Below the pieces are notes generated by a model, which worked only from the letters and a program-made list of their open reading frames with translations, had not been told where the DNA came from and made no database searches. A stretch of 64,000 nt of DNA from Zingiber officinale. Its lineage: Eukaryota; Streptophyta; Magnoliopsida; Zingiberales; Zingiberaceae. The position numbers and the translations under genes were made by a program. The stretch lies in assembly GCF_018446385.1 (NCBI RefSeq), contig NC_056002.1, positions 34,148,063 to 34,212,062 of the forward strand, given 5' to 3'. This document shows positions 7,194-64,000 of this stretch, piece by piece; within the stretch, counting starts at the first letter, position 1; every line of letters starts with the position of its first letter.

Positions 7194-7540
7194 CACTACT
7201 AGAAAACTAGGCTTTTGAGACACAACAAAATATGTCTTAAATTATATATTTACTGTCTCAAAATATTTTTGAGGCGGTGATGAGACAGTAATGTAGTCGT
7301 CCCTAATACAAGCGTCTCAAAAAAATATTGAGACAGTTGTACTGTCTCAAATGCTATTTAAGACAGTGATGAGACAATTATTTAATTGTCTCAAAAGTAT
7401 TTAAGACAGTTATTGTTTTGTCTCAAATGTTGTGTCTTATCCTATGAAAAAAACTAAAGACACTAAATTGAGATGGTAATGTGCTGTCTCAAATAGAAGT
7501 GAAGACAGTAAATTACTGTCCCTAATATTTTAACTTGTTA
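7194..7540. repeat. CACTA terminal and subterminal repeats
   Basis: After the terminus, the motif TGAGACAGT / ACTGTCTCA recurs many times in both orientations through about 7540. In CACTA elements such subterminal repeats are the binding sites of the small transposition protein. From 7541 to 7795 the sequence is AT-rich and non-coding, probably the 3' flank of the minus-strand gene. Confidence 0.75.
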
Positions 7541-7795: not shown

Positions 7796-10517
7796 CTATA
7801 ATCCTTCTTCATCAGAATCCTGAACATAAAAAAAACTCTTATTAGAGGTAAAGATGATTTATAATATATACTGTTAAAAAAAAATCAATAAACAGAACAT
7901 TTCAATAAGAAATCTCATCATCTAACACATAATCCTCTTTCTTGCAACTATATATATATACAACATAAACAACCCTAAGTTAAACAAACCTCTTCATCTC
8001 GTAATAAGAAATGATGGTTTATGTGTTTGTCAATATCTTTGTGTCTTTCAAGTTGTTGCACCTGTAAAATAAATTTATCTACAGCTTAAAAATATATACA
8101 CTACTACATCACCAAAATTGTTAATAAAACTAAAAAAATTCTTATGAAAACAACTACCAATGTACCTGTTGGTTATACAATCCTTGTTCATGTGAAATAA
8201 TATTATCTGCAACCTAAATAAAAAATAATGTACGTATCACAAAACTATCAAAATTCATTATAAAAGTCAGTTATTTAAATAAAGTAAAGATACCTTTTGA
8301 TTTCTAAATTCACTGGATTCCATACCAAGATGAGTCAATGGGGATTCATGATTCTCTAACTTTGATTGAAGTGCATCTATTTGAGATTTCATTTGGTTTA
8401 GAATAGGAGTCACTACTTTCATACACTCTGCTACAGCTTTCTCCGTAGCCATTTTTATTAACTCATTTGAATGTTCATTGGATAACAAAGGGTGAGTACG
8501 CATATCAGAAGGACTATGACCTAAACCCATAGTGCGAACATAACCATGACTTTGATTTCCCATGAAACTATTGAAAATCTTCTATCTCAACTCAGGTGTT
8601 TGATCCTCAATAGGTACCGCTGATAACTTTTCTTGCATTTGACCCTAGATGTTTATTAACATCAATAAATATAGATCCTTCACAAGTAAACAAAATGATA
8701 ATGTCTAAATAATATAAGAATTATAAATGAATGTGTTTACTATTAAATTTGCAGCCTCAGCATCAGCTGGAACTCCATTTTTAGAACGAGCCTCAATGTA
8801 TGTTGTTAAGGGATCAGTTGACTTTCCATCAGCTGCCAACTATATAAAAATGACAAATCTTTATAAATTTGTTACCAGAAAAATATAGTATATTATAATT
8901 ATACATACTTTTATTTTGAAGTTAGGCATCGAAATCCTTCCGGTCCTATGTATTGGCCCCACAAGTTCTCTATTGAGTGCATTTTTCTTTGAAATTTCCT
9001 TTAAAAAAAATAGAGATTTTTTTGAACAGGTTATAATGACAATAATTAAAAAAACATAAACAATGTTATTTGAGACAAGATTACTTGAAATTTGTCTGTA
9101 CTCCAGTACTCGATGAGAATCCTCCATTGCTCAGGTTCAACACGATTAGGAACATTGGTTAACAATTGGTCATACGTCTTTCCATTAAAATAATCAGTTT
9201 TAATTCGATTCTTCCACTTTCTCCATTTGTCGCCAACAGATTTAAGACATACAGACTTATGTGCCAGAGGGGCATTACTGCTCTCCTATATAATTTATAG
9301 GAGATATATGAACAGTTAAAAAATATTTAGAAACAATTATTATAACTAGGTTAGAAACATTGCTTGTCATATTGGTCATATGATATGATTAATAATAGAG
9401 CAAAAATGGAGAACTTACTTGAACTTCATTCCAGATATAATCTGTAACATGTGTGGGCATGTCAGACCATTCCACATATGTTAAGGGAACTTGGACACCA
9501 TTACGAGCAATTCGACCAAGCAATGATGAATACTTCCCTGCATTCGATCCAATAGCTTGGAATGATTCGTTGAAATCAACTATTAACTTTTCACCTGCAT
9601 GTAAATCCCCTTGAGCAGGGCCTCTTCCTCTCTTTTTAGTAACTTCATTGTTAGTTTCTCCTATAAATTCAACAAACGTAAAAGACTTGTAAATTACAAT
9701 AAGTAAAAAAGTACCAACAAAGAGAGGTGATAAAGAATACGAGAAATTTAAAAAATAATTGAACACTTTAGAAATCTATATAAACTAACCTGAATTTGGC
9801 AAGGTTAAACTAGGTTGTAAATTAGGTGGATCAATTGATTGTGAATTTTGTTGTTCATCAATGAGCTCCAAAGTTTGAGCTTGCAATGTTGATACTTGTT
9901 GAACTTGTGATTGATGCTTGGATCTTGTTTGTGGACGATGAACTATTGGACGTAACATATTATTTGGTCTTTGTTGTTGTGGTTTCTCTAGTACACGTGT
10001 GGGAGGATGCACTTGAGATAAATTACCCTGAGCAGGGCCTCTTCCTCGTTTTTTAGTCACTCCATTATTAGTTTCTCCTAGAAATTCAACAAATGTAAAA
10101 GACTTATAAATTACAATAAGTAAAAAAAGAACCAACAAAGAGAGGTGACAAATAATACAAGAAATTTAAAAAATAATTGAGCACTTCGGAAATCAATATA
10201 AACTAACCTGAATTTGGTAAGGTTAATCCAGGTTGTGAATTAGGTGGATCAATTGATTGCGAGTTTTGTAGTTCATCAATGAGCTCCAAAGTTTGAGCTT
10301 GCAATGTTGATGCTTGTTGAACTTGTGATTGATGCTTGGATCTTGTTTGTGGATGATGAATTATTGGACGTAATATGTTATTTGGCCTTTGTTGTTGTGG
10401 TTTCTCTATTACACGTGTAGAAGGATGCACTTGAGATATATTACCTTTTACCACATTTGTTTTATCACCATTCAATTTTTCCAACATGGTTGTCCCTTTC
10501 TTTTTTTGTCTAGCCAT
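7796..10517 (-). pseudogene. CACTA-associated transposase-24 (Ptta/En/Spm) family protein, spliced
   Basis: The start MARQKKKGTT is at 10517. Exons inferred from open frame and GT/AG borders: 10208-10517, 9790-10077, 9419-9660, 9085-9285, 8909-8998, 8741-8839, 8294-8644, 8167-8213, 7990-8062, and a last exon DSDEEGL-stop ending at 7796. Exon 3 holds RGRGPAQGDLHAGEKLIVDF; exon 4 holds KSVGDKWRKWKNRIKTDYF; exons 5-6 hold RTGRISMPNF and DPLTTYIEARSKNGVPAD. These are typical of the plant transposase_24 family, and exon 7 ends in a coiled-coil-like stretch. The family is thought to bind the subterminal repeats. Oddities: exon 2 duplicates much of exon 1, and a TAG at 8582-8584 interrupts exon 7, so the copy is probably dead. 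Confidence 0.75.
9614..10445 (-). repeat. ~415-bp tandem duplication inside the CACTA gene
   Basis: The stretch from about 9614 to 10035 (GCAGGGCCTCTTCCTC, an intron with AATTACAATAAGTAAAAAA, then AATTTGGCAAGGTTAAAC through CACTTGAGATAAATTACC) recurs from about 10036 to 10445 with few differences. The copied block contains a whole intron and most of one exon, so it added an exon with the same Gln/Ser-rich peptide (RPQTRSKHQSQVQQ). Confidence 0.8.
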
Positions 10518-16136: not shown

Positions 16137-16775
16137 CTTGTTAGGACCTTCGGATGAGGCTAGAGAGGGGGGGTGTGAATAGCCGACCTCAAATTATCGT
16201 TTCTTCCTACAATTTAGGTTAGCGCAGCGGAAATACAATGTAGAAACGAAAGTGGAGAAGATCAAACCTCAAACACGATGATGTAACGAGGTTCGGAGAT
16301 GATACTCCTACTCCTCTGCGTGTCCGTAAGGTGGACGAAGCCTATCAATCCGTCGGTGGATGAGACCCCGGATAACCGGCTAATATGAACTCCTTTTGGG
16401 TGGAGAAACCTCGCCACAATCTCTTTTGCAACAGCAATAAAGGAGAACAAGAAATAAATCAAGAAACAATGGATAATATGAATGTAAATACACTCTACCA
16501 AGTTTGCTTGCCTTCTTCTCGTTGACTGGAGTCCGTTGATGAAGCAACAACTTCACGGATGATGCCAACAGCAGCTGATCAACCAGTCGAGGGAAGCTCA
16601 CACGAAGCTTCAGCAAAGAGGAGCTCAGCAAAGCTCAAATCGCAGTAAGGAGGAAGAGCAAGAACTGTCCTATAGAGGCCCTCGACCTCGATATATATCC
16701 TGTACCTGTTGCACCTGTGAAGAAGACAAAGATCAACACAGAAATCTAGCCGTTGTGTCGCAACGGCTAGGCCTG

Positions 16776-17065
16776 GACCGATCAGGCTCCACCCTGATCG
16801 GTCTGGGAGCCATCTGATCGGTCTGTGGACCGATCAGGCCCTAGGCTGATCGGTCCCCAGACCGGTCAGCCATCTCTGTGAAGGTTGGCTTTAAAGGCCT
16901 GATCGGTCTGTGGACCGATCATGCAACGATCAGTAGCTTCCTGATCGTTTTCTGATCGGTCTGTGGACCGATCAGATAACCTACAGCGAACCACTGTTTG
17001 GTTACTGATCGGTCACCAGACCGATCAGATAAACCTGAGTATCACTGAATCGGTCACCAGACCGA
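16776..17065. repeat. Perfect GATCGGTC stem / four-base-loop palindromes
   Basis: Examples: stem CTGATCGGTC, loop TGTG, stem GACCGATCAG; the same stem with loop ACCA. At least five related hairpins occur in about 290 bp, with conserved stems and varying loops. Confidence 0.8.
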
Positions 17066-17099
17066 TCCAATGCCTTAGAGCTTCCCAGCCCTAAATCCT

Positions 17100-17730
17100 A
17101 AAGCCTTCCCGGTCTAGAGAACGAGCTACCGAGCCCTCTCTGACCTAGTCTAGAGAAACGAGCTACCGAGCCCTCTCCGACTTCCATGTCCGATCCAGAG
17201 AACAAGCTACCGAGCCCTCTCTGACCTAGTCCGGAGAACGAGCTACCGAGCCCTCTCTGATTTCCACGTCCGGTCCAGAGAACGAGCTACCGAGCCCTCT
17301 CTGACCTAGTCTGGAGAACGAGCTACCGAGCCCTCTCTGACTTCATCTGCTCCAGAGAACGAGCTACCGAGCCCTCTCTGACCTAGTCCGGAGAACGAGC
17401 TACCGAGCCCTCTCCGACTTCATCCGGTCCAGAGAACGAGCTACCGAGCCCTCTCTGACCTAGTCCGGAGAACGAGTTACCGAGCCCTCTCCGACTTCAT
17501 CCGGTCAAGAGAACGAGCTACCGAGCCCTCTCTGACCTAGTCCGGAGAACGAGCTACCGAGCCCTCTCCAACTCTGTCTGGTCCAGAGAACGAGCTCCCG
17601 AGCCCTCTCTGACCTAGTCTGGAGAACGAGCTGCCGAGCCCTCTCCGACTTCGTCTAGTCCAGAGAACGAGCTCCCGAGCCCTCTCTGACCTAGTCCGGA
17701 GAACGAGCTACCGAGCTCTCTCCGACTCCT
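17100..17730. repeat. Tandem array of ~38-bp units in the minus-element LTR
   Basis: About 16 copies of a unit close to AGAACGAGCTACCGAGCCC followed by TCTCTGACC and a variable spacer. Two alternating spacer types give a ~75-bp higher-order period. This is an LTR minisatellite; the open frame across it (17614-17796) is not considered coding. Confidence 0.85.
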
Positions 17731-18073
17731 CATGCCAAGCTTCCATACTTGGACTTCTCCCGTGCCAAGCTCCCTGCTTGGACTTTTCCGTGCCAAGTCT
17801 CCATACTTGGACTTTTCCCCGTGCCAAGCTCCCTTCTTGGACTTTTCCGTACCAAGTCTCCATACTTGGACTTTTCCCGTATCAAGTCAACTCAAGTCGG
17901 GTCAACCAGGTCAACCTTGACCGAAGGTTGCAACCACAATCTCCCAAGTTTGTATTCTTGTCAAACATCAAGATACAACTTTTCTATTCTCGTCAAACAT
18001 CAAAATACAACTCGAGTCAGGTCAACTCGAGTCGGGTCAACCAGGTCAACCTTGACCTAAGGTTGCACCAACA

Positions 18074-18533
18074 CTGGTGAGTGAAGCCAGGCAGAAGAAA
18101 GTCCTGGTGAGTGAAGCCAGGTGAAAATCCTAGTGAGTGAAGCTAGGTGAAAGACCTGGTGAGTGAAGCCAGGCAGAAGAGAAGTCCTAGTGAGTGAAGC
18201 TAGGCAGATTGGAAGTCCTGGTGAGTGAAGCCAGGCAGGAGAAAGTCCTGGTGAGTGAAGCCAGGCAGAAGAGAAGTCCTAGTAGTGAAGCTAGGCAGAT
18301 TGGAAGTCCTGGTGAGTGAAGCCAGGCAGAAAAAAAGTCCTGGTGAGTGAAGCCAGGCAGAAGAGAAGTCCTAGTGAGTGAAGCTAGGCAGATTGGAAGT
18401 CCTGGTGAGTGAAGCCAGGCAGAAGAAAGTCCTGGTGAGTGAAGCCAGGCAGAAGAAAATCCTGGTGAGTGAAGCCAGGTGAAAATCCTAATGAGTGAAG
18501 CTAGGTGAAAGACCTGGTGAGTGAAGCCAGGCA
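18074..18533. repeat. Hairpin minisatellite, 5' LTR copy
   Basis: About 15 units of ~30 bp. Each holds CCTGGTGAGTGAAGCCAGG or CCTAGTGAGTGAAGCTAGG, that is a 5-bp stem around the constant loop TGAGTGAAG. The stem changes as a pair (G-C to A-T) between the two unit types. Apparent ORFs across it on the minus strand (18187-18654) are repeats read through, not a gene. Confidence 0.85.
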
Positions 18534-18542
18534 CGGGAAAAT

Positions 18543-18742
18543 CCAAATGGGTCAAGATTGACCAGACATCTGGTGGAAGTCCAAGTAGGTCAAGGGAGTG
18601 ACCGGATACTTGGCACGAAGAGAAAAGTCCAAGTAGGTCAAAGGGATTGACCAAACACTTGGTGAGAGAGTCCTAGCAGGTCAAGGGAGTGACCAGATGC
18701 TAGGCATGATGTACCAACAGGTCAGGGTTGACCGAATGTTGG
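18543..18742. repeat. Five consecutive two-tier hairpins
   Basis: Outer stems in order: CCAAATG/CATCTGG (18543, one mismatch here, perfect as CCAGATG in the 3' LTR), CCAAGTA/TACTTGG (18581), CCAAGTA/CACTTGG (18629; CCAAGTG in the 3' LTR), CCTAGCA/TGCTAGG (18672), CCAACA/TGTTGG (18713). Each encloses a related inner stem close to GGTCAA/TTGACC. The outer stems differ in sequence but keep pairing. Confidence 0.8.
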
Positions 18743-19596
18743 TTTGAGAGGCTTGGGACTTGGTTTTGGGAAAAAACCAAGAGCTGGATCGATCAGTGGA
18801 TCGATCCAGGAGCTGGATCGATCAGTGGATCGATCCAGGCTTTTTACTAGCGAACAGAAAGCCTCTGGATCGATCAGTGGATAGATCCAGGCCTTTCCCA
18901 GCGAACAGAAAGCCTCTGGATCGATCCGTGGATCGATCCAGAGGTCCCAATCGATCAGCCGATCGATTGGGACGCTACTGGTTCGCGCGATAAGCACTGG
19001 ATTGATCCGTGGATCGATCCAGGCATTTTCCCAGAGCACAGAGGCGCTCTGGATCGATCCGTGGATCGATTCCAAAGCCTCCCCGATCTATTGGGAGCTT
19101 TCGAATCGATCGGGATCCGACCGTTGCGTCGTATTTGAGCTGCAGGCGTGCGATGGCTGCAGAAGAACTTCACCAGCGACTCCACAGAGCTCTCCACGCC
19201 AGTTCTTGAGGTTCTTGGAGGTTCTTCCAAGTCAAGAGGCGGATCTATTGCAAGAGGAAGAAAGCTAGGGTTAGGGTTTTCTTGTACTCATTGTAAGCTT
19301 TGTGCTTGTATTTTGTATCCTTTCCCCTTCCTCTTGTAGTGTGAACTTGTAGGGCTTCTCCGCCTTCGGTAGTTACCGAAAAGGAGGATTTTCTTAGTGG
19401 AGGGTGCGTGAGTAGGTGTGGATTCTTGGACTAGTCACCTCTTGTGAGGTGGATACCAAGTAAACCAACCTTGTTAGCGTTGTGTGGTTTGTTTCTTGTA
19501 TTTCCGCTGCGCATCTTTGAAGAAACAAGCAATGACGAGCACCTAGCACGCGATGAGCTATTCACCCCCCTCTAGCTACTTTTCGGTCCCAACAAG

Positions 19597-19608
19597 TGGT
19601 ATCAGAGC
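19597..19608 (+). other. Primer-binding site of the plus-strand gag-only element
   Basis: TGGTATCAGAGC two bases after the LTR terminus CCCAACA, as in the minus-strand relative. It supports Copia ancestry although pol is absent. Confidence 0.9.
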
Positions 19609-19669
19609 AAGGTCGCTCTTCACCGGAATCATCGCCGGAAGGGGCAAACAAAACAAGCAAAGCTAGAGG

Positions 19670-21480
19670 GTGAAGAAGTTGGAGCAAAATTCTACAAGTC
19701 GAAGACTTCATCAAGAAGCTCAACTTCAAATGGAATTCCGAGATGGACTCGGATTCGACACGAGGGTGCCTCCACCATACACATCTACAAGCTTCGATCT
19801 TTGGAAATCAAGGATCGAAAACTTCTTAATGGTGGAGATAGAGCAATGGTTTGCTCTCATGGAAGGTTTTGAAGCTCCCACAAATTCCAAGGGCAAAGTA
19901 CTCAAGAGGAGCAAGTGGAGCCAAGACCAAATCCAAAGGTGCAAGGCCAATGACAGAGTGACCTAGCTTTTGGTCAATTTATTGCCAAGCACCATCCTTT
20001 GCAAAATTGGAGAATTTGAAGATGCAAAGGAATTATGGAGTAAATTGGCCAAGCTTCATGAAGAGATCCCCTCCACTGTACAAGAGCAAGAAGAATCTAG
20101 AGAGGGTGACTCTTTGGAGCAAGACCAAGAGGAGGACTCCGAGGTTGAGAGAGGCTCAACCTCCAAAGAAGAAGTCCAAGAAGAAGCTTCATCTTCAAGG
20201 GAGTGCAATGAAGAGAACAAGGAGGGAGCATACTCCTTGTTCCATGTACAAGATGATGAAGCCACCACCTCTAGGATTGAGGGGGAGTGTAGATCAATGA
20301 ACCCGGAGCAAGAAGAGGCCTCTACATCCGGGTAAGTGAAGAAGAAGAAGATGGTGCCACCTCCAAAATTTAAGAAATATCAAATGGAGGAGCAAGTGTC
20401 ATCCCTACACAAGAAGGTATAAATGTTTCAATTAAAAATAAAAATTATATAATATGTTTTGAGTGTAGGGAAAGTGGGCATTATAAGAGCAAGTGTCCCA
20501 ACTTGGCCAAGAAGAAGGGTCAAGTGACACAAAAAGGCAAAGAGAAGCCCAAGGAGACCACCCCCGGGACAAAGAAGAGCAAGGAGCACATTGTGTGCTT
20601 CTTGTGTCAACAAAAAGGGCATTACCAAAGTCAATGCCCCAAGAGGAAGAAGATGGTCAAGGCTCATGAAGGAAGCTCAACTCAAGGGGGAGCCTCCAAG
20701 GTAAAAAGGAAGGTATCTTTTATTGAGCCTATTCCCTTGCAAAATGGTAAAAAGCATGCTAGGTCAAATTTATATCATTTTAATGCTATTTACCATGAAA
20801 ATAGGAAGCATGATAACATTAAGGAAAATCATGTAGCTTATCATGCTAAGACTACCACACCTAGGATTAGGAAGATGGATAAAAATCTAGGCAATCACAC
20901 TAAGGACCATAGTTATAAGCCTAGAAACAAAAATGCTCATGGGTGTAATGAAAAATCAAAATCTAAAGATTTAATGATAGAAAATCAAGTCTTGAGGTCA
21001 AGACTTGACAAACTAGAAAAGACCCTAAAAAGGATGGAAAATATCCTTAAAGGGAAAAATGAGCAAAATCTAGGTTTAAGATAACAAGGGTCATCCAAGG
21101 GCCATAGAGGTTTGGGATACAAACCTAAAATCAAAAAGGATGTACCTACTTACCATAGGGTTCCATATAGCTATGGAACCAACCCTAAGTCTAGAAGTCA
21201 AGTCAAGGATACAAGGGAAGTCATCCCTAGAAGTATCTTTGCAACAACAAATGTGACTAAGACTTCTAATAAGTCTAAGAAAGTCACTAACAAGGTCATA
21301 AGGGAGGCTATCCCTAGAGTTGACCTAGAAAATGTTACCAAGGCTTCTAAGAAGCCCAACAAGGTCACTAGGAAGGTAGCTAGGGAAGTTATTCCTAGTG
21401 AGTAGCTAGAGCATCCAAGGAGCAACAATAGGTGTTGGGTTCCTAGGAGTATCTTCTCTACCCCATAGATGGGTTAGAGA
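19670..21480 (+). pseudogene. gag: Gag of the plus-strand gag-only element, broken
   Basis: Pieces in order: FDLWKSRIENFLMVEIEQWF (about 19793-19850), a stop at 19966, then STILCKIGEFEDAKELWSKL, a Glu/Ser-rich linker to a stop at 20335, a first knuckle CFECRESGHYKSKC spanning about 20457-20500 in another frame, a second knuckle CFLCQQKGHYQSQC (about 20598-20640), the coiled-coil segment ENQVLRSRLDKLEKTLKRME (about 20980-21040), and a basic tail to RCWVPRSIFSTP. Residue order matches the minus-strand copy throughout. At least four stops or frame changes separate the pieces. No protease, integrase or RT follows. Confidence 0.8.
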
Positions 21481-23813
21481 GTGTCAACTCCGATTAGAAG
21501 GGTAGTTAACCCAACTTTGAGGAAATTGACACTCAAGGAGCATTTTCAAGGTTTTTGTTAACCTTTGAAAATGAAATGGAATTATTACTTACTCCTTGAA
21601 AGAGTAAAATGGGCCTAATGGTGGAAAAATTGATTTTATCTTAAAATGGCATAAATTAGAAAACCTAGAGAAATACCAAGTTGGGAGTTTGGTATTCTCT
21701 TAGACATTTAAGGCAATCCGGGCCTTGATTTATGTGATTACTCTTGAGGAAAAATGGAATATGCCAACATTTGAGGATATGCTTAATTTTTAAATGGCAT
21801 AAACAAATCAAGAGAAATAGAAATGTCAATTTAGGTTTTGGCATTTCTTTGAAGCATTTAGGGCAATCTAGGTTTAACGTTTTAAGCTAAAACTAGTGGT
21901 ATATTTTGAGTTAGCTAAGTGGTTAAGGATACTTAGATAGGTAATCTAGGTATATTTTATTTATGCTAAACCTTGCCATGATTGTGTGCCCATCATATGC
22001 CATGACATCATGTCTATTTTTGCATTCATGACTTATTATGAAAAATATAAAAATATCATGTCATGTCATACATACATCATGTAATTATAGGAATCTTTCT
22101 TTTGAAAGCTATTTCATTTTGATGTATGTCATAACATTATCATGCATTAAGTTTAATTCCTTAAAAGTAAGGACAAATGACATTTATCAACAAGTGTTTT
22201 CAACAAGTGGTATTAACAAGTAACATCCTAAGTGGATGTTCAATATCCACAAAATGCCTAGATAGATATGCATGATCCCTAGATTAGGGCAAAACCAAAC
22301 TTTATATCTCATAAAGACCAATAAGATGACTTGTATGTGTTTTAGTGCACATTAGATACAAGTGAGATATTAGGATGATGAACAAAACTCAAGATGTTGA
22401 CTTAGTGCATTCTTTTGAGTTTTAAGTTCATCAAAACATATAGTTATGTGTTTTCCCATCATTGGGAAAGCTAATGTACAAGTAATGTGCATTAAGCCCA
22501 AGGAATATGGTGGGATATTGATTTTGAAAATGTTTTAAAAATAATTTTGGAAAATTTTGGTGAAGGCTATCTTTTGATAGTAATTACCATTGAATAGTTA
22601 GACACAAACTTAAAGAAAACACTAAAGTTTTTGCAAGTTCTCAAGTTTGTGTCAATCTTTGAAAATATGATACATTTTCATAGAAAACTATTTTTCCATG
22701 ATAAATTATAGCCTAAATAATGTCTACACAAATTTTTACGATTTTTGGAATTTTGTAGAATTTTCTAGGGGTTTATGAAATTAGCTGAAATTGAATTTCA
22801 GCAATTTCAGGCCTTCAATCGATCGGTGGATCGATTGGAGTGCCTCAATCGATCAGCCGATCGATTGAGAAGGCATTTCTCGCGAGCAGAAGCTCGTTGG
22901 ATCGATCAGCCGATCGATCCAAGAAGATTGAATTGATCAGTGGATCGATTCAGCAGGGTTCAATCGATTGGAACCTAACTCCAATCTATCGAAGATGCTG
23001 ATTTTGGCTGGTAAGGTCTGATTTCAGCATCTTTGAACCTATTTTAGTCTAGGTAACCATTCCAAACCCCTGAAAATACATTTGTATACATAAAAAGGGT
23101 GTTTTCGTGTGGAAAACAAGGATGAATTGGTTAAGGAAGGCTAAGTTGAAGTTTAGGTTGAGGTTTGTTTCAAATTTTGAATATTTGAACCTCAAAACTT
23201 CTAAAATTGGGTTTCCTAAAGTTTTAGGGATTCCAAGTCATTGTTGGTGCAATGACAGAAGTTACCACCATGTCTTTAGGGGGAGGGACTCTTTAAAGAC
23301 ATGAAAATTATTTTTCATGAACCTTGGAAGGTGGTTAACCTTCCGTTAAGAACATTCTCAAGGTTGAGCGTTTGAACTTTAATGGGGAGTGGATATCCTC
23401 ATTTGTTCAAGTGGTTTCAAGTGGATAATGCTCAAGGATGGGCATTTGCCTACATTGGGGGAGAATGTAGGGTTAAGGATAATGAAGGGTATGGGACCTT
23501 CATTATCGTGTTAATCACAACGAGTGAAGTTGTGAACAACGATGAGTAACTCTTCAGGGGGAGAGTTTTCAACAAGTGAATTTGTTGATGTGTGCCCAAA
23601 AATGGGGCATGGTTTGATGTGTGCCAATAGGGGGAGAGTGAAAGGGAGTAAGTTAGGCTTTCATTACCTAGAGGGAGTTTGCCCTCTTAGGGGGAAAATG
23701 AAGGGCTTAACTTATGTACTCATTACCTAGTGGCATGAAGAAGGTTCAGGCTATGGGATTAGCCTAACTTACATGTGGTATTGTAAGTGATAGTGTTGGT
23801 ATTGTCAAACATC
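21481..23813 (+). other. Non-coding internal region in place of pol
   Basis: No open frame with family resemblance in about 2.3 kb. It holds ATGACATCATG-type words (about 22000-22140) also seen in the minus copy (about 14090-14280), and four GATCGATC palindromes at about 22817-22960, for example stem CTCAATCGATC, loop AGCC, stem GATCGATTGAG. The last 500 bp are G-rich with repeated GGGGGAG words. Both gag-only copies share this region, so it is part of the element. Confidence 0.65.
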
Positions 23814-23827
23814 AAAAAGGGGGAGAT

Positions 23828-25952
23828 TGTTGGTGCAACATCCCTCAGGTCAAGGTTGACCTGGTTGACCAAGCTTGAGTCTTGGTTTGAGTTTCGATGT
23901 TTGACAATGCAAGGTTGATTAAAGAAGAGTCAAGTAGGTCAAGGATGACCGGATACTTAACTGGGAAGTCCTAACTGGGATGTTAGGCAGAAGAAAGACC
24001 TGGTGAGTAAAGCCAGGCAGAAGAGAAGTCCTAGTGAGTGAAGCTAGGCAGATTGGAAGTCCTGGTGAGTGAAGCCAGGCAGAAGAAAGTCCTCGTGAGT
24101 GAAGCCAGGTGAAAATCCTAGTGAGTGAAGCTAGGTGAAAGACCTGGTGAGTGAAGCCAGGCAGAAGAGAAGTCCTAGTGAGTGAAGCTAGGCAGATTGG
24201 AAGTCCTGGTGAGTGAAGCCAGGCAGAAGAAAGTCCTGGTGAGTGAAGCCAGGCAGAAGAGAAGTCCTAGTGAGTGAAGCTAGGCAGATTGGAAGTCCTG
24301 GTGAGTGAAGCCAGGCAGAAGAAAGTCCTGGTGAGTGAAGTCAGGCAGAAGAAAATCCTGGTGAGTGAAGCCAGGTGAAAATCCTAGTGAGTGAAGCTAG
24401 GTGAAAGACCTGGTGAGTGAAGCCAGGCAGAAGAGAAGTCCTAGTGAGTGAAGCTAGGCAGATTGGAAGTCCTAGTGAGTGAAGCTAGGTGAAAGTCCTG
24501 GTGAGTGAAGCCAGGCAGAAGAAAGTCCTGGTGAGTGAAGCCAGGAGAAAATCCTAGTGAGTGAAGCTAGGTGAAAGACCTGGTGAGTGAAGCCAAGCAG
24601 AAGAGAAGTCCTAGTGAGTGAAGCTAGGCAGATTGGAAGTCCTTGTGAGTGAAGCCAGGCAGAAGAAAGTCCTGGTGAGTGAAGCCAGGCAGAAGAGAAG
24701 TCCTAGTGAGTGAAGCTAGGCAGATTGGAAGTCCTGGTGAGTGAAGCCAGGCAGAAGAAAGTCCTGGTGAGTGAAGCCAGGCAGAAGAAAATCCTGGTGA
24801 GTGAAGCCAGGTGAAAATCCTAGTGAGTGAAGCTAGGTGAAAGACCTGGTGAGTGAAGCCAGGCACGGGAAAATCCAGATGGGTCAAGATTGACCAGACA
24901 TCTGGTGGAAGTCCAAGTAGGTCAAGGGAGTGACCGGTTACTTGGCACGAAGAGAAAAGTCCAAGTGGATCAAAGGGATTAACCAGACACTTGGTGAGAG
25001 AGTCCTAGCAGGTCAAGGGAGTGACCAGATGCTAGGCATGATGTACCAACAGGTCAGGGTTGACCGAATGTTGGTTTGAGAGGCTTGGGACTTGGTTTTG
25101 GGCAAAAATCAAGAGCTGGATCGATCAGTGGATCGATCCAGGAGCTGGATCGATCAGTGGATCGATCCAGGCCTTTCCCAGCGAACAGAAAGCCTCTGGA
25201 TCGATCAGTGGATCGATCCAGGCCTTTCCCAGCGAACAGAAAGCCTCTAGATCGATCAGTGGATCGATCCAGAGGTCCCAATCGATCAGCCGATCGATTG
25301 GGACGCTACTGGTTCGCGCGATAAGTGCTGGATCGATCCGTGGATCGATTCAGGTGTTTTCCCAGAGCACAGAGGCGCTCTGGATCGATCCGTGGATCAA
25401 TCCAAAGCCTCCCCGATCGGTTGGGAGCTTTCGAATCGATCGGGATCCGACTGTTGCGTCGTATTTGAGCTGCAGGCGTGCGATGGCTGCAGAAGAACTT
25501 CACGATTTCATCTCAGATCTTCACCAGCTACTCCACAGAGCTCTCCACGTCATTTCTTAAGGTTCTTGTAGGTTCTTCCAAGTCAAGAGGCGGATCTATT
25601 GCAAGAGGAAGAAAGCTAGGGTTAGGGTTTTCTTGTACTCATTGTAAGCTTTGTGTTTGTATTTTGTATCCTTTCCCCTTCCTCTTGTAGTGTGAACTTA
25701 TAGGGCTTCTCCGCCTTCGGTAGTTACCGAAAAAGAGGGTTTTCTTAGTGGAGGGTGCGTGAGTAGGTATGGATCCTTGGACTAGTCACCTCTTGTGAGG
25801 TGGATACCAAGTAAACCAACCTTGTTAGCGTTGTGTGGTTTGTTTCTTGTATTTCCGCTGCGCATCTTTGAAGAAACAAGCAACGACGAGCACCTAGCAC
25901 GCGACGAGCTATTCACCCCCCCCCCCCCTCTATCTACTTTTCGGTCCCAACA
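23828..25952 (+). repeat. 3' LTR of the plus-strand gag-only element
   Basis: Starts TGTTGGTGCAACATCCC directly after the polypurine tract and ends TCGGTCCCAACA at 25952; 2125 bp. Same blocks as the 5' LTR, with a longer minisatellite (about 23994-24865), the five two-tier hairpins (24875-25075), GATCGATC palindromes (about 25115-25410) and a longer C run at 25916-25929 than in the 5' LTR. The adjoining 3' flank (AAAGGTGACTGG) cannot be matched to a 5' target copy because the other end is lost. Confidence 0.9.
23994..24865. repeat. Hairpin minisatellite, 3' LTR copy
   Basis: Roughly 28 units of the CCTGG/CCTAG hairpin repeat. Most units keep stem pairing; exceptions such as CCTGG with TCAGG (near 24331) are rare. 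Higher-order blocks of several units recur, which indicates expansion by unequal exchange. Confidence 0.85.
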
Positions 25953-26326
25953 AAGGTGACTGGATACTTGCGGAGAAGCTCAGAGCAGGGCTTGAAGCAG
26001 GTTAAAGTGACCTGCTTCGGGCCCCACCCTCAGCTTTGTTTAAGACCATCTCACATGATATCTGATCTGGATCATGACTTTGATATCATTTGTTATGCCC
26101 AAATGATGTTCACATATTTCCATAATGACTTTAATACCAATTGTTAGAACTAAAAGAATTAATCATTACCTTATAAGATTATTATCGTTTCCAAATCTTT
26201 TCAATTGTTGTATTCAATCAAGTCCCATATTAAAAAAATTTATAAAAGATAATAGACTTATAAGGTAAATTATAAGGTAAAGATATCTTAATTCTTGGAC
26301 CTAATAAAATAAATTACTCTCAGACG
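25953..26326. other. Flank with possible minus-strand Copia LTR end
   Basis: No gene. ATACCAATTGTTAGAAC near 26131-26147 resembles the complement of a Copia primer-binding site and LTR end, so an old minus-strand LTR may start here and be split by the hAT insertion. The last eight bases (26319-26326, CTCAGACG) are the hAT target duplication. Confidence 0.4.
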
Positions 26327-34621: not shown

Positions 34622-37600
34622 TGTTAGGGTCAAAATGTGCTAGGGGTGAATAACTCATCGTGCTTGATTGCTTGCTTTGTTGTTGTTGATAGGCAGCGGA
34701 ATAAGACTACCAAGCACTCTACAATGCTAACACAAGGGATTTACTTGGTATTCACCTCAAGAAGAGTTGACTAAGCTAAGGATCCACACACGCGAGCACT
34801 TTCCACTAAGAAAATACTCCTTCTCGGTAACTACTGGAGGTTGAGAAACCTTGTACAACACTCACACATACAACACTCAACACAAGAAGAAAAATACAAA
34901 GAGTAGAAGTGTAAAACCCTCTCTTCTTGCTTAGTTGTTGCTTGTTGTTGCCTCTTGAGCCTTGGAAGTGCACCAGCACGTGCCTCCAAGAATCTTCAAG
35001 AACTGGCAATGAGAGCTCGGAAATAATAGCTGAGAGTGGAGTTGAAGATCTGCGGAGGAAAACGCTCGACAACAGCTATAACCTGCGCAACAGTCGAATC
35101 TCAATCGATTGAATTACTCTCAATCGATTGGGGAGACTTTGAATCGATCGGTCGATCGATTCAGAGCGCCTCTGTGCTCTCTGAGAATAGTTTGAATCGA
35201 TCGACCAATCGATTCAGGCTTTCCCACAATCTCGCAAGAAATCCAGCCTATCCCCAATCGATCGACCGATCGATTGGAGGTTCCCAATCGATTGGTTGAT
35301 CGATTGGGAAAGCCTCTATGTGTGCGACATAAGCTCCCAATCGATCGACCGATCGATTGGGTCATCTTTGTTCACGACACACATCCAATCGATCAACTGA
35401 TCGATTGGACTTCGGTTCAATTGATCGGTTGATCGATTGAACCACCTTTAACTTGCCTAAAACCAAGTCCAAGGTCTCCAATTCCAACATTCGGTCAATT
35501 GTGACCTGTTGGAATATTATGCCTAGCATCCGGTCAACCTTGACCTTCTAGGACTTCTTCACCAAGTGTCCGGTCAATCCCTTTGACCCACTTGGACTTT
35601 TCTTCACGTGCCAAATATCCAGTCAACCTTGACCCACTTGGACTTCCTTCCACCAGATGTCCGGTCATTCTTGACCCATCTGGATTTCCTTGTGCCAAGT
35701 ATCCAGTCAACCGTTTGACCTACTTGGACTTCCCACACCAGGTGTCCAGTCAATCTTGACCCACCTGGATTTCCACGTGTTTGGCTTCACTCATCAGGTC
35801 TTTCCACGGCCCGGCTTCACTCACCGGGACTTCTACTTGCCTGACTTCACTCACCAGGACTTTCACCTGACTTCACTCACTAGGTCTTTCTATCTTCCTA
35901 GCTTTACTCACTAGGTCTTTCACCTGGCTTCACTCACCAAGATTTCTAACTGCCTAGCTTCACTCACTAGGTCTTTCCATCTGCCTAGCTTCACTTACTA
36001 GGTCTTTCACATAGCTTCACTCACAAGGATTTCCAACTACCTAACCTCCAGTTAGGACTTTCCTGTTAGAGTGTATACTAAAAGCCTAACTTTTTGTAAA
36101 CATTTATTTTGAAATAAAGAATCACATTGGTTAAATGTCTACATTTATGCTAAGTGTAGTTATTCAATTAATTTATATTGTAGATAACATGGTGTGTGGT
36201 GTCACACACAGAAGATAATGTTATCAGTTCTTTATAAATTATAAACAGTTGCTCACGACTAAGATGGATAGGAACAAACCATTGGAATAGTCGTAGTGTA
36301 ATTTGATATTAGTTTATCTTGACTATAAAATTACACTAGTACACTCAGAGTATATTGAGCTGGACCATTTAAGGTAAGTTCTTTTTATACTGATTAAATA
36401 AAAGAACAAGACCTTTGTTATTATGGAAGTGTGTGCTCTTAATCATGATATAATAACAAGCACATATACTTAATATTCATTTCTTTAATTTATCAAAGGG
36501 TGTGATTTAGTTCGATAAATCAATAGGCCCGATAAGTTGGGAAATGATATTATTTATATGGTGTGTTGTTAATTATAGAATGAAACTGTGTTCTAGTAAT
36601 CTAGGTTGATAATGTCCCCAAAAGGAGCTCATAAGGATTGTCATATAAATCCTGCAGGTAAACTTAGTCCAACATGAGGATAAGGTAAAGTGGTACTACT
36701 CTTTGACTAAGATATTAATTAAAGTGAGTTGTCAGTAACTCATTTAATTAGTGGACATTCGACATCTTAAACATAGGGAGATTAACACACTCATGATAAG
36801 AAGGAGCCCAAAATGTAATTTGAGATTGGTGCAGTAGTTCAATAATAATTCTTTAGTGGTATGAATTATTATTGATGAAATTAAGTTGGGTGTTCGGGGC
36901 GAACACGGGAAGCTTAATTTCATCGGGAGACTAAAACCAATTCCTCCTCTCGGTCCCTATCATAGCCTCTTATTTATAGAGAATTATATCCATCACCTAC
37001 CCACCCTTACGTGGTCAACCAAGCAAGCTTGGAGCCAAAGCTTGGGTCAGCCAAGCCAAAGGCTTGAGCCAAGTAGGGTGGCCAGCCATAGCTTGGAGCC
37101 CAAGCTTGGTGTGGCCGACCATATAAAATAAAAGGGATTTTGCTTTTAAAATCTTTTCTTATGTGGAAGCCATGTTTTAAAAGAGAGTTTAAAATTTAAA
37201 TCTTTCCTTTTATAGTTTTCTACAAAAGATTAAGAGAAAGATTAGATATCTTTCCTTATTTGTAGTTGAAAGGGAGATTTTAATTTTGGTGAAAACTTTC
37301 CTTTTTTGTAAATATCCACAGTTTTAAAAGAGAGGTTTTAATTTATAAAAATTTCTTTTTATAACCAACCATGAAGGAAAAATTAATAGAGAAATTTGTA
37401 TTTTAAAAATTTCCGGAAACAAATAAGGAAGTTTTAATTTTGTGTTTAAAACTTACCTTATTTAGAGTACTTGTAGGGGTCAACCATGAGAAGGGTTAAA
37501 AGGAATTTTTAATTAAATTTTCCTTATTAACCAATAGAAAAATAAGGGAATTTTAATAATAATAAAATTTTCTTATTTTCCAAGACCAAGGAATATAAAA

Positions 37601-38704
37601 GAGAGGGTAGAGGTGTCTCACCTCACAACATATCTTCTATTGTTTCTCTCTTCTCTTCCTTGGTGTGGTCGGCCCTATACTCCTCCTTTTCTCTTCTTCT
37701 TTAGTGGTCGGTGCATCCCTCTCTTGGAGTTCTTGTGGTGGCCGGTTCTTGCTAGGAGAAGAAGGAGAGAAAGAAGGCTTTGTTCTAGCATCCCTTGGAG
37801 CTTGAAGGTTGGTGGCCGAACTTGCAATAAGGAAGGTGTCTTGGTGGTTCTCATCTTGGTAGATCGTTGCCCACACAACGTCCGAGATAAGAAGAGGAAT
37901 ACGATAGAAGATCAAGAGGTTGTTGCTTACAAAGAAAATTATAACTAGTAATTCTATTCCGCATCATACTAGTTTTCTTTGTATAGATTTTGAAATATCA
38001 AACACAAGAGGCTAGTGATTCTAGATTTTCAGATTTGTGATTCGAAGTTGTGTTTCTTTTATTTTTTTGTTCTTATGATTCGATTGTTCTTTTTGGTTAA
38101 ACTTAGGGTTACTATAAGGAAATTAAATACTGAATTTCATTGAGAGGTTTTGTCGAGGCAGTGGTGGATGTTTCCATACCCAAGAAGGCCAAGTGTCTCG
38201 CCATGTTTGACCTGGGAGCCGATATCTGAAATAAATATTTAATTGAATTTGTAACGTGGGTGGATTTGGATCTATAATGTTAAGTATCATTTGCGATCCA
38301 AGTCTAAACCTCTAAGAACAGATAAGTTAAATTTAGAATCAATAATGTTAAGTTCTGTTTGCAATTCCAAATTTAATTTCTAAAGAACACAATAGGTTGT
38401 TAGGAATGATTCAGGACTTGTACAAAATTTTTGTACAGGGGAACCGGTACGATATTCCCAGTAGCAACCAACATTTCCCAGTCAAGTATCCAGTTAACTC
38501 TTTGACCTACTTGACTCTTCTTCACATCTAACTGGTCAACCTTGACCAGAGGGGAATTGTATCAACAATCTCCCCAAACGGACGATTGCATCTGCAATCT
38601 CTATGTATTGTCAAACATTGAAACTCAAACATCAAGACTCAAGCTTGACCCCACTCAAGTTTAGTCAACCTGGTCAACCTGACACAGGGGCTATTGCACC
38701 AACA
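34622..38704 (-). mobile_element. Solo LTR related to the gag-only elements, itself interrupted
   Basis: On the minus strand it begins TGTTGGTGCAATAGCCC (complement of 38688-38704) and ends ...TTTTGACCCTAACA (34622). Candidate 5-bp target copies are GACCG (34617-34621) and AACTG (38705-38709), differing by two transitions. It carries the family's hairpins (35484-35767), CCTGG-type repeats (about 35770-36030) and ATCGATCGACCGAT palindromes (about 35100-35440), plus the TACCGAGAAGGAGTATTTTC region on the minus strand. A second LTR is inserted at 36064-38474. Without that insert it is about 1.67 kb. No internal region is attached, so it is a product of LTR-LTR recombination. Confidence 0.75.
36064..38474 (+). 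mobile_element. Nested solo LTR with perfect 5-bp target duplication
   Basis: 2411 bp from TGTTAGAGTG to CAACCAACA, TG...CA termini, flanked by identical TTTCC at 36059-36063 and 38475-38479. A TATA box (TATAAAAGAGAGGG, about 37590) is followed by a C/T-rich leader, indicating plus-strand LTR orientation. No gag or pol and no primer site inside. The open frames at 36886-37948 lie in LTR sequence and have no family match. It is the youngest layer here, inserted in the 34622-38704 LTR. Confidence 0.85.
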
Positions 38705-44676: not shown

Positions 44677-45330
44677 GTCGAGCGGCGACGTTAAACACGT
44701 GTCTACATCAAACCGTTGAGCGGCGACGTTAAATTCGTGTCTATATCAAATCGTCGAGTGACGACGTTAAACGCGTGTCTACATCAAATAGTCGAGCGAC
44801 GACATTAAACGTGTGTCTCCACCAACAGTCGAGCGGCGACCTTAAACCTTAGTCTCCACCAACGGTTGAGCGGTGACCTTAAACCCAAGTCCTCATCAGA
44901 TCGTCGAGCGGCGACGTTAAACGCGTGTCTCCACCAACGGTCGAGCGGCGACCTTAAACCCAAGTCCTCACCAAATCGTCGAGCAGTGACGTTAAACCCG
45001 GGTCTTGACCAAACCGTCGAGCGACGACGTTAAATGGGTGTCTACTTCCAACCATCAAGCGGCGACGTTAAACACGTATCTACATCAAATCGTCGAGTGG
45101 TGATGTTAAACCCGAGCCTCCACCAAATCGTCGAGCGGCGACGTTAAACGCGTGCCTTCACCAACGGTCGAGCAGCGACCTTAAACCCAAGTCTTCCCCC
45201 AATTGTCGTACCAAATTGTCGAGCGGCGACGTTAAACCTCGGTCTTCACCAAATCGTCGAGCGGCGATGTTAAAACGTATTTCCTAACTAACGGTCGAGC
45301 GACGACCTTAAATTCGAGCCTGCCCCTATG
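44677..45330. repeat. Tandem array of ~38-bp units after pol
   Basis: About 17 copies of a unit like GTCGAGCGGCGACGTTAAAC plus a variable ~18-bp spacer (GTGTCTCCACCAA and similar). Two unit types alternate: GACGTTAAA and GACCTTAAA. Tandem repeats between integrase and the 3' LTR are known from Tat-lineage elements. Confidence 0.85.
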
Positions 45331-49730: not shown

Positions 49731-50273
49731 CTAGGCCTTATTTATTCTTATTAAGTATTCATCATTATTATTGTAATTATACGGTCTTTCGCCGTCGACG
49801 TTGCCGGGGGGATCGTAGTTGCAGATGATGAAGATGGCGCCGCTGTTGCACAGGACGCGTCCGCAGCCGATCACCGTCGACGACCGCCACACCACTTGCG
49901 TGTAGTGGCCGCACACCTGACCGGTGGCGCAGGTGTTGCTGTAGTAGTCGTAGTACCGCCGCTCCGCCACCCAGGCCCTCACGGCGTCCGCCGCAGTGTA
50001 GTCGCGGCCGGATCCCCAGAAGATGTTCTCGCCGTAGGGCCCGCCTGAGTGCACCAGCTGGCAGTCCCTGGCCCGCTGGTTCGCGTAGTCCTGCGCGTAC
50101 CTCGCCACGCGCCTGTCCCACGACACCGGCGGCAGTCCCTCGCCGACGTTCGCGCGCGCCGTGTTGTGGGCGTTCACGTAGTCCTGAGGCGAGTTCTGCG
50201 GCACGACCGCCGGCGCAGCCGCCAGAGCCACCGCGGCGGCGCACACCAACGCCAGCAGGAATGATGACGTCAT
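49731..50273 (-). CDS. PR-1: Pathogenesis-related protein 1 (CAP/SCP superfamily), secreted
   Basis: Intact, intronless, 180 residues. The signal peptide is about residues 1-24 ([20 protein letters not shown]). The CAP domain follows: [14 protein letters not shown] with the conserved His, [25 protein letters not shown], and the Cys residues of [22 protein letters not shown] and [10 protein letters not shown] that make the three PR-1 disulphides. PR-1 acts in the apoplast in defence against microbes and binds sterols. The C-terminal motif [11 protein letters not shown] fits the CAPE consensus PxGNxxxxxPY, but 15 more residues ([15 protein letters not shown]) follow, where typical PR-1 ends at or just after the Tyr. 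The ATG at 50271-50273 is chosen because it opens the signal peptide. A truncated second copy lies at 63338-63778. Confidence 0.95.
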
Positions 50274-50430
50274 CTCTAAATTAATTAGTATTAGTAGTCG
50301 ATGAGAGAGCTCTGCTTCTGCTTCTGCTTCTGCTTCTGCTTTGCGGTGTTATTTATAAATCTCTAATGCCCTAAACAAAAACTAAAGATAAAGAAACGTA
50401 TTTTATTATTTTTTTTTCACGTCAAATTAA
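50274..50430 (-). promoter_or_regulatory. PR-1 promoter with TATA box and as-1/W-box-like site
   Basis: The TATA box ATTTATAAAT (50351-50360) lies about 80 bp upstream of the ATG. TCACGTCAAA (50417-50426) reads TTTGACGTGA on the gene's strand and holds both TGACG (as-1-type, TGA factors) and TTGAC (W-box core, WRKY). The same ten bases occur at 63931-63940 upstream of the second copy. A (CTTCTG)n run at about 50311-50340 (five units, two in copy 2) lies in the leader. A further GGTCAA (W-box core, minus) is at 50542-50547. Salicylate control is inferred from these motifs only. Confidence 0.6.
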
Positions 50431-63366: not shown

Positions 63367-63778
63367 CGCAGCCGATCGCCGTCGACGATCGCCACACCAC
63401 CTGCGTGTAGTGGCCGCACACCTGGCCGGAGGCGCAGGTGTTGCTGGAGTAGTCGTAGTTCTGCCGCTCCGCCACCCAGGCCCCCACGGCGTCCGCCGCC
63501 GTGTAGTCGCGGCCGGATCCCCAGAAGATGTCCTCGCCGTAGGGCCCGCCCGAGTGCACCAGCTGGCAGTCCCTGGCCCGCTGGTTCGCGTAGTTCTGCG
63601 CGTACGCAGCCACCTGGCTGTCCCACGACACCGGCGGCAGACCCGCGCCGACGTTCGCGCGCGCCGCGTTGTGGGCGTTCACGTAGTCCTGAGGCGAGTT
63701 CTGCGGCACGACCGCCGGCGCAGCCGCCAGAGCCAACGCGGCGGCGCACACCAACGCCAGTAGGAATGATGACGTCAC
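63338..63778 (-). pseudogene. PR-1: Second PR-1 copy, 3'-truncated
   Basis: From the ATG at 63776-63778 it matches the first copy through signal peptide, [32 protein letters not shown] (Asp for Asn), and [18 protein letters not shown], then breaks at about 63367 and ends [13 protein letters not shown] from unrelated DNA. It lacks the last beta strand, two conserved Cys and the CAPE motif, so a folded PR-1 is unlikely. The upstream region keeps a TATA box (TCTATAAATA, complement of 63831-63840) and TCACGTCAAA at 63931-63940, so it may still be transcribed. Confidence 0.9.
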
Positions 63779-64000
63779 CTCTAAATTAATTAGTAGTCGA
63801 TGAGAGAGCTCTGCTTCTGCTTCGCGGTGTTATTTATAGATCTCTAATGCCCTGAACAAAAACTAAAGATAAAGAAAAGTAAGAATTGAATAGTTTATTT
63901 ATTTATTTAATATCAATTTGATTCTTTTTTTCACGTCAAATCAAGGCAGCTATCTTAATTAGCAATTCTAATTAAAGATTAAAATTTACTCGATTTTCTT

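What the first reader, a model, noticed from the sequence alone, without database searches (positions are those of the whole stretch)
18074..18742. LTRs built from serial hairpins with compensatory stem changes
Seen directly: the ~30-bp minisatellite unit has a constant 9-base loop (TGAGTGAAG) and a stem that is CCTGG/CCAGG or CCTAG/CTAGG. A third type, CCCGG/CCGGG, occurs in the related solo LTR (35810-35829, other strand). Next to it, five two-tier hairpins have different outer stems (CCAGATG, CCAAGTA, CCAAGTG, CCTAGCA, CCAACA), each paired with its own complement around a GGTCAA/TTGACC inner stem. The solo LTR adds CCAGGTG/CACCTGG, and the minus LTR adds CCAAGC/GCTTGG against CCAAGT/ACTTGG. 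Stems that vary together while loops stay fixed are what selection on DNA or RNA folding would leave. Inference: a structured element RNA (packaging, dimerisation, export) or a cruciform-type DNA signal.
Basis: partly seen in the sequence, partly recalled or inferred. Interest (0 to 1): 0.85.

Follow-up and report, generated by a model that had tools for sequence, protein, structure and literature searches.

The report
Hairpin arrays in Sirevirus-type LTRs
The control region of a common kind of plant jumping gene is built from rows of small hairpins whose two arms change together; palindrome-rich LTRs of this kind are already known, and what is new is the evidence that arm pairing was kept while the elements were still jumping and is now decaying.

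Summary
It lies in a plant Ty1/copia LTR whose element meets most sequence tests for a Sirevirus. Palindromic repeat clusters in Sirevirus LTRs are published (PMC2829016), so the kind is known. The 30-bp array alone is weak evidence: 43 perfect stems fall into three types (25, 17, 1) and were spread by copying. The two-tier hairpins and ATCGATC palindromes are stronger: 6 of 7 outer pairs changed on both sides, covariation 0.413 against 0.198 shuffled, 0 of 500 as high. Between two diverged LTR families stems differ at 6 of 120 sites, unpaired sites at 26 of 100. Between the two LTRs of one copy, stems outside the array differ at about the background rate, with 0 of 9 changes compensated. So pairing seems to have been kept in the transposing lineage, not in the chromosome. 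DNA or RNA pairing is unresolved. Many inner arms are inverted W-boxes, so I favour a regulatory role. Packaging at the 5' end is unlikely. No further copies could be obtained for a proper covariation test.

The parts
18074..19594 (+). 5' LTR of the + strand Sirevirus-type element (P5), its first part missing at the junction with the minus-strand LTR
   Evidence: self-BLAST to 24410-25953 at 93.4%; PBS TGGTATCAGAGC at 19597
18074..18533 (+). array of about 30-bp single-tier hairpins, loop TGAGTGAAG, stems CCTGG/CCAGG and CCTAG/CTAGG
   Evidence: fold z -7.1 sense, -4.0 antisense
18543..18743 (+). five two-tier hairpins: variable paired outer arms, constant inner arms GGTCA/TGACC
18780..19110 (+). 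cluster of seven ATCGATC...GATCGAT palindromes with variable paired flanks (Sirevirus repeated-motif type)
   Evidence: fold z -12.6/-13.5
19597..19608 (+). primer binding site
20374..21081 (+). open piece of gag with zinc knuckles
   Evidence: Pfam zf-CCHC 5e-09
22818..22949 (+). four more ATCGATC palindromes in the internal region before the 3' LTR
23278..23825 (+). four AGGGGGAG tracts (23278, 23556, 23629, 23818), the last just before the 3' LTR
23801..23908 (+). inverted repeat ATTGTCAAACATC / GATGTTTGACAAT around the PPT/3' LTR junction
23828..25952 (+). 3' LTR (P3) with longer array (23976-24866), two-tier hairpins (24874-25075), palindromes (25110-25440)
16139..18073 (-). 5' LTR of a second Sirevirus-type element (MM): five CCAAG hairpins at 17735-17869 and ATCGGTC/GACCGAT palindromes at 16797-17066
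34622..36063 (-). related LTR (M2): array, seven two-tier hairpins (35768-35483), seven palindromes (35143-35437); its first part continues at about 38474-38704 beyond a nested insertion

Best explanation
The feature is the palindrome-rich U3 cis-region of a Sirevirus-type LTR. It holds three classes of hairpin in series: single-tier units with a constant loop, two-tier units whose constant inner arms mostly form inverted W-boxes, and ATCGATC palindromes. While the family was transposing, arm pairing was kept by selection: a change in one arm survived mostly if the other arm followed. I think it most likely acts as a promoter-upstream DNA module that presents paired recognition sites (W-boxes in one class, ATCGATC or ATCGGTC in another), with unit number changing by copying. 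Shown: anatomy, covariation, conservation of stems between families, no sign of constraint or repair after insertion. Inferred: that selection rather than a mutational process kept the pairing, and that the block is in U3 (from the Sirevirus layout; the promoter was not located). Least certain: that the molecule is DNA and that the binding proteins are WRKY factors.
For: Two-tier hairpins, 18 rows (16 distinct): 96.9% of cells pair (shuffled 86.3%), covariation 0.413 (shuffled 0.198, best slid register 0.154), 0 of 500 shuffles as high; 6 of 7 outer pairs have changes on both sides, 0 of 5 inner pairs. Swapping 3' arms among one hairpin per type (6 hairpins, chosen from P3 and M2; P5 rows left out): 42 of 42 pairs, mean 26.3, 1 of 720 orders as high; M2 alone 46 of 49, 4 of 5040; P3 alone 41 of 42, 1 of 720. 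ATCGATC cores (37 found, 33 distinct flank pairs): the five flanking pairs are Watson-Crick in 29, 29, 28, 21, 15 of 33, permuted means 16.5, 11.2, 16.5, 13.9, 7.9. P against M2 by position: stems 6/120 differences, unpaired 26/100, Fisher p 1.2e-5; R-U5 172/465. P5 against P3: two-tier stems 4/118, palindrome stems 5/154, R-U5 17/511; 0 of the 9 compensated. W-box TTGAC(C/T) 24 to 40 per kb in two-tier blocks, 1.58 per kb outside the LTRs; WRKY binding of that core is stated in PMC6671987 (passage). Sirevirus palindromes upstream of the promoter: PMC2829016.
Against: W-box binding does not by itself need complementary outer arms. Hairpins within an LTR are related by copying and P5/P3 are not independent, so all probabilities are optimistic. 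In one search two of five measures are not strong (pairs with two-sided change 23 of 500 shuffles as high; further pair types 203 of 500). In one search the outer stems alone are only weakly slow (4 of 35 pairs altered, P 0.041 against a 25% rate, 0.00074 against 37%), and only one compensated change (h5, A-T to T-A) is seen between P and M2. W-box density is inflated by repetition of one unit, and the boxes are incomplete: 7 of 10 possible in P5, 5 of 10 in P3, 12 of 14 in M2; none in the P3 array or palindromes. Nine changes since insertion are few. No expression, binding or small-RNA data.
Confidence: 0.45

Rival explanations
1. RNA-level structure: the U3 hairpins fold at the 3' end of the genomic RNA, where U3 is transcribed once, and act in RNA stability, export, Gag binding or reverse transcription.
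For: Pairing itself is what varies least. Of 5 pairs altered between P and M2, 3 became G.U on the sense strand, 1 was compensated, 1 broke, 0 became A.C, while changes between P5 and P3 outside the array gave 5 A.C, 2 G.T and 1 other among 8 scored. The array folds better in the sense strand (P5 z -7.1 against -4.0).
Against: Over all palindromes mismatches are balanced: flanks 10 A.C and 9 G.T, cores 5 and 4 (5 of the 37 cores lie outside the three LTRs and their strand was assumed). Two-tier blocks fold better in the antisense strand in all three LTRs (-7.1/-7.2/-6.2 against -3.8/-4.7/-5.1). The three G.U pairs sit in one hairpin of one copy. No Rfam family matches.
Confidence: 0.25
2. A mutational process makes and repairs the palindromes: template switching within a hairpin, most likely during reverse transcription, copies one arm onto the other without selection.
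For: Template switching can create stems and compensatory changes (PMC8794818, abstract and passages). No clear strand bias. No compensation after insertion (0 of 9), as expected if it happens only in the element's replication.
Against: Repair without selection would keep complementarity but let stem sequence drift at about the neutral rate (my inference); between P and M2 only 5 of 60 pairs are altered (P 0.00096 at a 25% rate, 4e-7 at 37%) and only 1 is compensated.
Confidence: 0.2
3. Whole hairpin units were copied and the apparent covariation is founder variety only.
For: Single-tier stems are almost all of two types (42 of 43 perfect ones) arranged in higher-order repeats of 92, 184 and 266 bp.
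Against: Outer arms of two-tier hairpins show six distinct paired stems, and palindrome flanks many, around constant cores; linkers and cores are alike, so the units share a frame.
Confidence: 0.1

Closest known systems
Palindromic repeated motifs (RM) of Sirevirus LTRs (Bousios et al. 2010, PMC2829016; sections 6 and 9 and passages seen)
   Same: High-copy palindromes with dyad symmetry in the LTR upstream of the promoter, in some elements also in the linker; the Tnd-1 motif ACAATCGATTGT shares the ATCGAT core, and the Osr8/Osr10 motif CGGTC-N-GACCG is the core of the minus LTR here
   Different: Published motifs are listed as one consensus per element, mostly with CGG-CCG, and 92% lie in the upper half of the LTR; here three hairpin classes lie in series, one with a constant 9-base loop and variable stems, one with W-box inner arms, the arms covary, and the ATCGATC cluster starts about 1.3 kb into the 2.1-kb P3 LTR
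[quoted passage not shown] 2016, Genome Res 26:226; not held, known through passages of PMC10760457)
   Same: Clusters of palindromes with strong predicted folding in the element
   Different: No small-RNA data here; the motif cited there, CACCGGACNNNGTCCGGTG, is not the one here
Template-switch origin of RNA hairpins (PMC8794818; abstract and passages seen)
   Same: A mutational route to paired arms and compensatory change
   Different: Studied there in RNA genes; here stems seem to drift too slowly for it to act alone

Membership tests
Sirevirus (Ty1/copia) | AGGGGGAG PPT starting 10 bp before the 3' LTR and further copies in the linker | tested here: met
   23278, 23556, 23629 and terminal 23818, LTR at 23828; two more copies at 20280 and 20685 in the gag region, where the paper finds them rare
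Sirevirus (Ty1/copia) | inverted repeat around the PPT/3' LTR junction | tested here: met
   ATTGTCAAACATC at 23801, its complement ending at 23908
Sirevirus (Ty1/copia) | conserved LTR/PBS junction | tested here: inconclusive
   TGGTATCAGAGC at 19597 (+) and 16136 (-) two bases after the LTR ends; the letters of the published 16-mer were not seen
Sirevirus (Ty1/copia) | C-rich integrase signal near the LTR 3' end | tested here: met
   CACCCCC at 19563 and 25914; a similar C run at 16175 (-)
Sirevirus (Ty1/copia) | palindromic RM, at least eight copies in 3' LTR and linker together | tested here: met
   7 in P3, 4 in the linker; 7 more in P5
Sirevirus (Ty1/copia) | CGG-CCG core of the RM | tested here: not met
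   ATCGATC core in P and M2, as in the published exception Tnd-1; CGGTC/GACCG in the minus LTR
Sirevirus (Ty1/copia) | CpG island and TATA box after the RM cluster | not tested
   a TATATATAT stretch near 16690 in the minus LTR was seen by eye only
Sirevirus (Ty1/copia) | large gag with CCHC knuckle and coiled coil | tested here: inconclusive
   zinc knuckles found; coiled coil not tested; the frame is interrupted
Sirevirus (Ty1/copia) | RT-RH clade | not testable with these tools
   no pol domain in the 10 distinct + strand open pieces of 19667-23727 scanned; piece 22795-23001 was not scanned
WRKY-bound W-box element | TTGAC(C/T) core enriched | tested here: met
   two-tier blocks 24 to 40 per kb, outside the LTRs 1.58 per kb; copying of units inflates this
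WRKY-bound W-box element | binding or response to WRKY factors | not testable with these tools
   needs experiment
Known structured RNA family | match to an Rfam model at gathering score | tested here: not met
   0 matches in the window

The most novel reading that the evidence does not exclude
Sirevirus U3 regions are serial hairpin modules in which selection acts on pairing itself during transposition, so each LTR keeps a code of distinct paired stems around fixed protein-binding cores; loss of constraint on insertion makes the stems a record of which lineages were active.
Probability: 0.35. Interest if true: 0.6.

Novelty: new variant of a known kind. Interest (0 to 1): 0.42.

Why it matters
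Palindrome-rich LTRs have been explained as regulatory sites and as sources of small RNA, with the open question why elements keep a structure that invites silencing (PMC10760457, passages). Evidence that pairing is kept only in the transposing lineage would show that the structure is worth its cost, and the hairpin classes give defined pieces to test.

Tried and rejected
More copies were sought and not found. The protein search with a gag piece gave 3 unnamed proteins among 82 candidates, so the host plant is not identified.

A first ortholog comparison paired P h2 with M2 h2 partly because their stems agree, which is circular; it gave stems 4/120. It was replaced by alignment by position, 6/120, which leaves out M2 h0 and h2. 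In both a site counts as changed only if M2 differs from both P5 and P3, and gap columns are left out. Only the R-U5 count is kept. In one search three compensated pairs in the array come from aligning different unit types, not from events, and are not counted; one P3 outer stem was mis-registered by the script's pattern, so its tally line for P3 is not used, and one of the nine stem changes (18637) was left unscored for that reason.

A packaging or dimerisation signal was judged unlikely because U3 is not in the 5' leader (established knowledge). GCN4-type TGA(C/G)TCA sites as the reason for the constant loop were rejected: 0 in the four LTRs.

Full report
What it is. The region 18074-18743 lies in the upstream part of the 5' LTR of a plant Ty1/copia element on the + strand. 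The LTR pair is 18074-19594 (first part missing) and 23828-25952, 93.4% alike over the aligned part. PBS, four AGGGGGAG tracts in the linker with the last one ending two bases before the 3' LTR, the inverted repeat around that junction and the C-rich LTR end are present and fit the description of Sireviruses in PMC2829016 (passages and sections 6 and 9 seen). The palindrome core is ATCGATC, not the usual CGG-CCG. Gag pieces carry zinc knuckles; no pol domain was found in 10 open + strand pieces scanned. Two further LTRs of the same general type are in the window: MM, 18073-16139 minus, with its own PBS, and M2, minus, about 38704-38474 plus 36063-34622, interrupted by an insertion at 36064-38473 flanked by TTTCC on both sides. 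The promoter and the U3/R border were not located; 'U3' here rests on the Sirevirus layout.

The observation. The hairpins are there and are far from chance. In P, three classes lie in series in the sense direction: single-tier units with loop TGAGTGAAG; two-tier units with outer arms of 6-7 bp, inner arms GGTCA/TGACC and a three-base bulge; and palindromes with core ATCGATC/GATCGAT. Over 320 windows of 200 bases with 30 shuffles each (data, read), 37 touching these LTRs have mean z -3.64 (+) and -3.26 (-), with 17 and 14 below -3; the 283 others have -0.93 and -0.93, with 39 and 37 below -3. Some windows outside are as low, for example 7201 (-9.2) and parts of the linker (22801, 23401). Not every hairpin block stands out: the M2 array (-1.6/-2.5) and the MM CCAAG hairpins (-2.0/-2.9) are weak.

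Covariation. In 18 two-tier hairpins (16 distinct rows) 6 of 7 outer pairs have changes on both sides, while 0 of 5 inner pairs do. The measure 'further pair types' is not unusual (203 of 500 shuffles as high) and 'pairs with change on both sides' is only mildly so (23 of 500); the score, the paired cells and the cells with two-sided change are beyond all 500 shuffles. These shuffles ignore relatedness. With one hairpin per type (6, P5 rows left out) 42 of 42 outer pairs form, and 1 of 720 arm orders does as well. The palindromes, found by their core only, show paired flanks to five positions; position six is not significant (p 0.077). Five of those 37 cores lie outside the three LTRs and the linker. 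In the single-tier array the evidence is thin, since 42 of 43 perfect stems are of two types.

Rates. Between P and M2, paired by position, outer stems differ at 5 of 70 sites, inner at 1 of 50, loops 6 of 23, bulges 3 of 15, linkers 17 of 62; R-U5 differs at 172 of 465. Five of 60 pairs are altered: one compensated (A-T to T-A in h5), three to G.U in the sense strand, all in one hairpin, one to A.G. Between P5 and P3, which are taken to have been identical at insertion, two-tier stems differ at 4 of 118 sites and the unpaired sites beside them at 2 of 84, palindrome stems at 5 of 154 and unpaired sites beside them at 10 of 182, R-U5 at 17 of 511; 0 of the nine stem changes is compensated. So stems appear to have been held in the transposing lineage and to be free now. 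This is the main new point, and it rests on few changes.

Mechanism. Where the base next to the inner arm is A or T as needed, the inner arms are W-boxes facing each other: 7 of 10 possible boxes in P5, 5 of 10 in P3, 12 of 14 in M2; TTGAC(T/C) is the WRKY core (PMC6671987, passage). Density is 24 to 40 per kb in the two-tier blocks and 34 and 37 per kb at the LTR starts of P3 and MM, against 1.58 per kb outside the LTRs. Together with the likely position in U3 this favours a regulatory DNA module. It does not explain why outer arms must pair. RNA folding at the 3' end of the transcript, or template switching in reverse transcription, would; the first has only a hint of G.U preference, the second predicts more stem drift than is seen. 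I hold 0.45, 0.25 and 0.2 for the three.

What is known. Palindromic repeats in Sirevirus LTRs and their folding are in print (PMC2829016; Bousios 2016 as cited in PMC10760457, passages). Searches of the held library for covariation or compensatory change in LTR hairpins showed me no paper on it (listings only, judged by title and start of abstract), which is a limited search.

Noticed in passing
36064-38473: LTR-like insertion of about 2.4 kb (starts TGTTAGAGTG, ends CCAACA) flanked by TTTCC on both sides, nested inside the M2 LTR; M2 has no exact PBS or AGGGGGAG match beside it and so looks like a solo LTR, with flanks CAGTT and CGGTC that agree at 3 of 5 bases.
   Followed up: partly
19595-23827: The + strand element has gag pieces but no recognisable pol in the open pieces scanned between gag and the linker, so it looks non-autonomous or internally deleted.
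   Followed up: partly
17109-17727: Minisatellite of 36/77-bp units in the minus LTR; unlike the P arrays it does not fold better than shuffles (z 0.08 sense).
   Followed up: partly
1756-1976: Four ATCGAT-type palindromes shortly after a PBS-like TGGTATCAGAGC at 1643; if this is a retrotransposon leader, the palindromes would be in the 5' end of its RNA.
   Followed up: no
9602-10445: Tandem duplication of a 418-bp unit, two copies about 91% alike.
   Followed up: no
44677-45186: 38-bp minisatellite, 13.5 copies.
   Followed up: no
49862-50400 and 63367-63881: Direct repeat of about 530 bp, 90% alike, 13.5 kb apart.
   Followed up: no
7201-7400: Window outside the LTRs with very low fold energy (z -9.2 and -8.1).
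   Followed up: no
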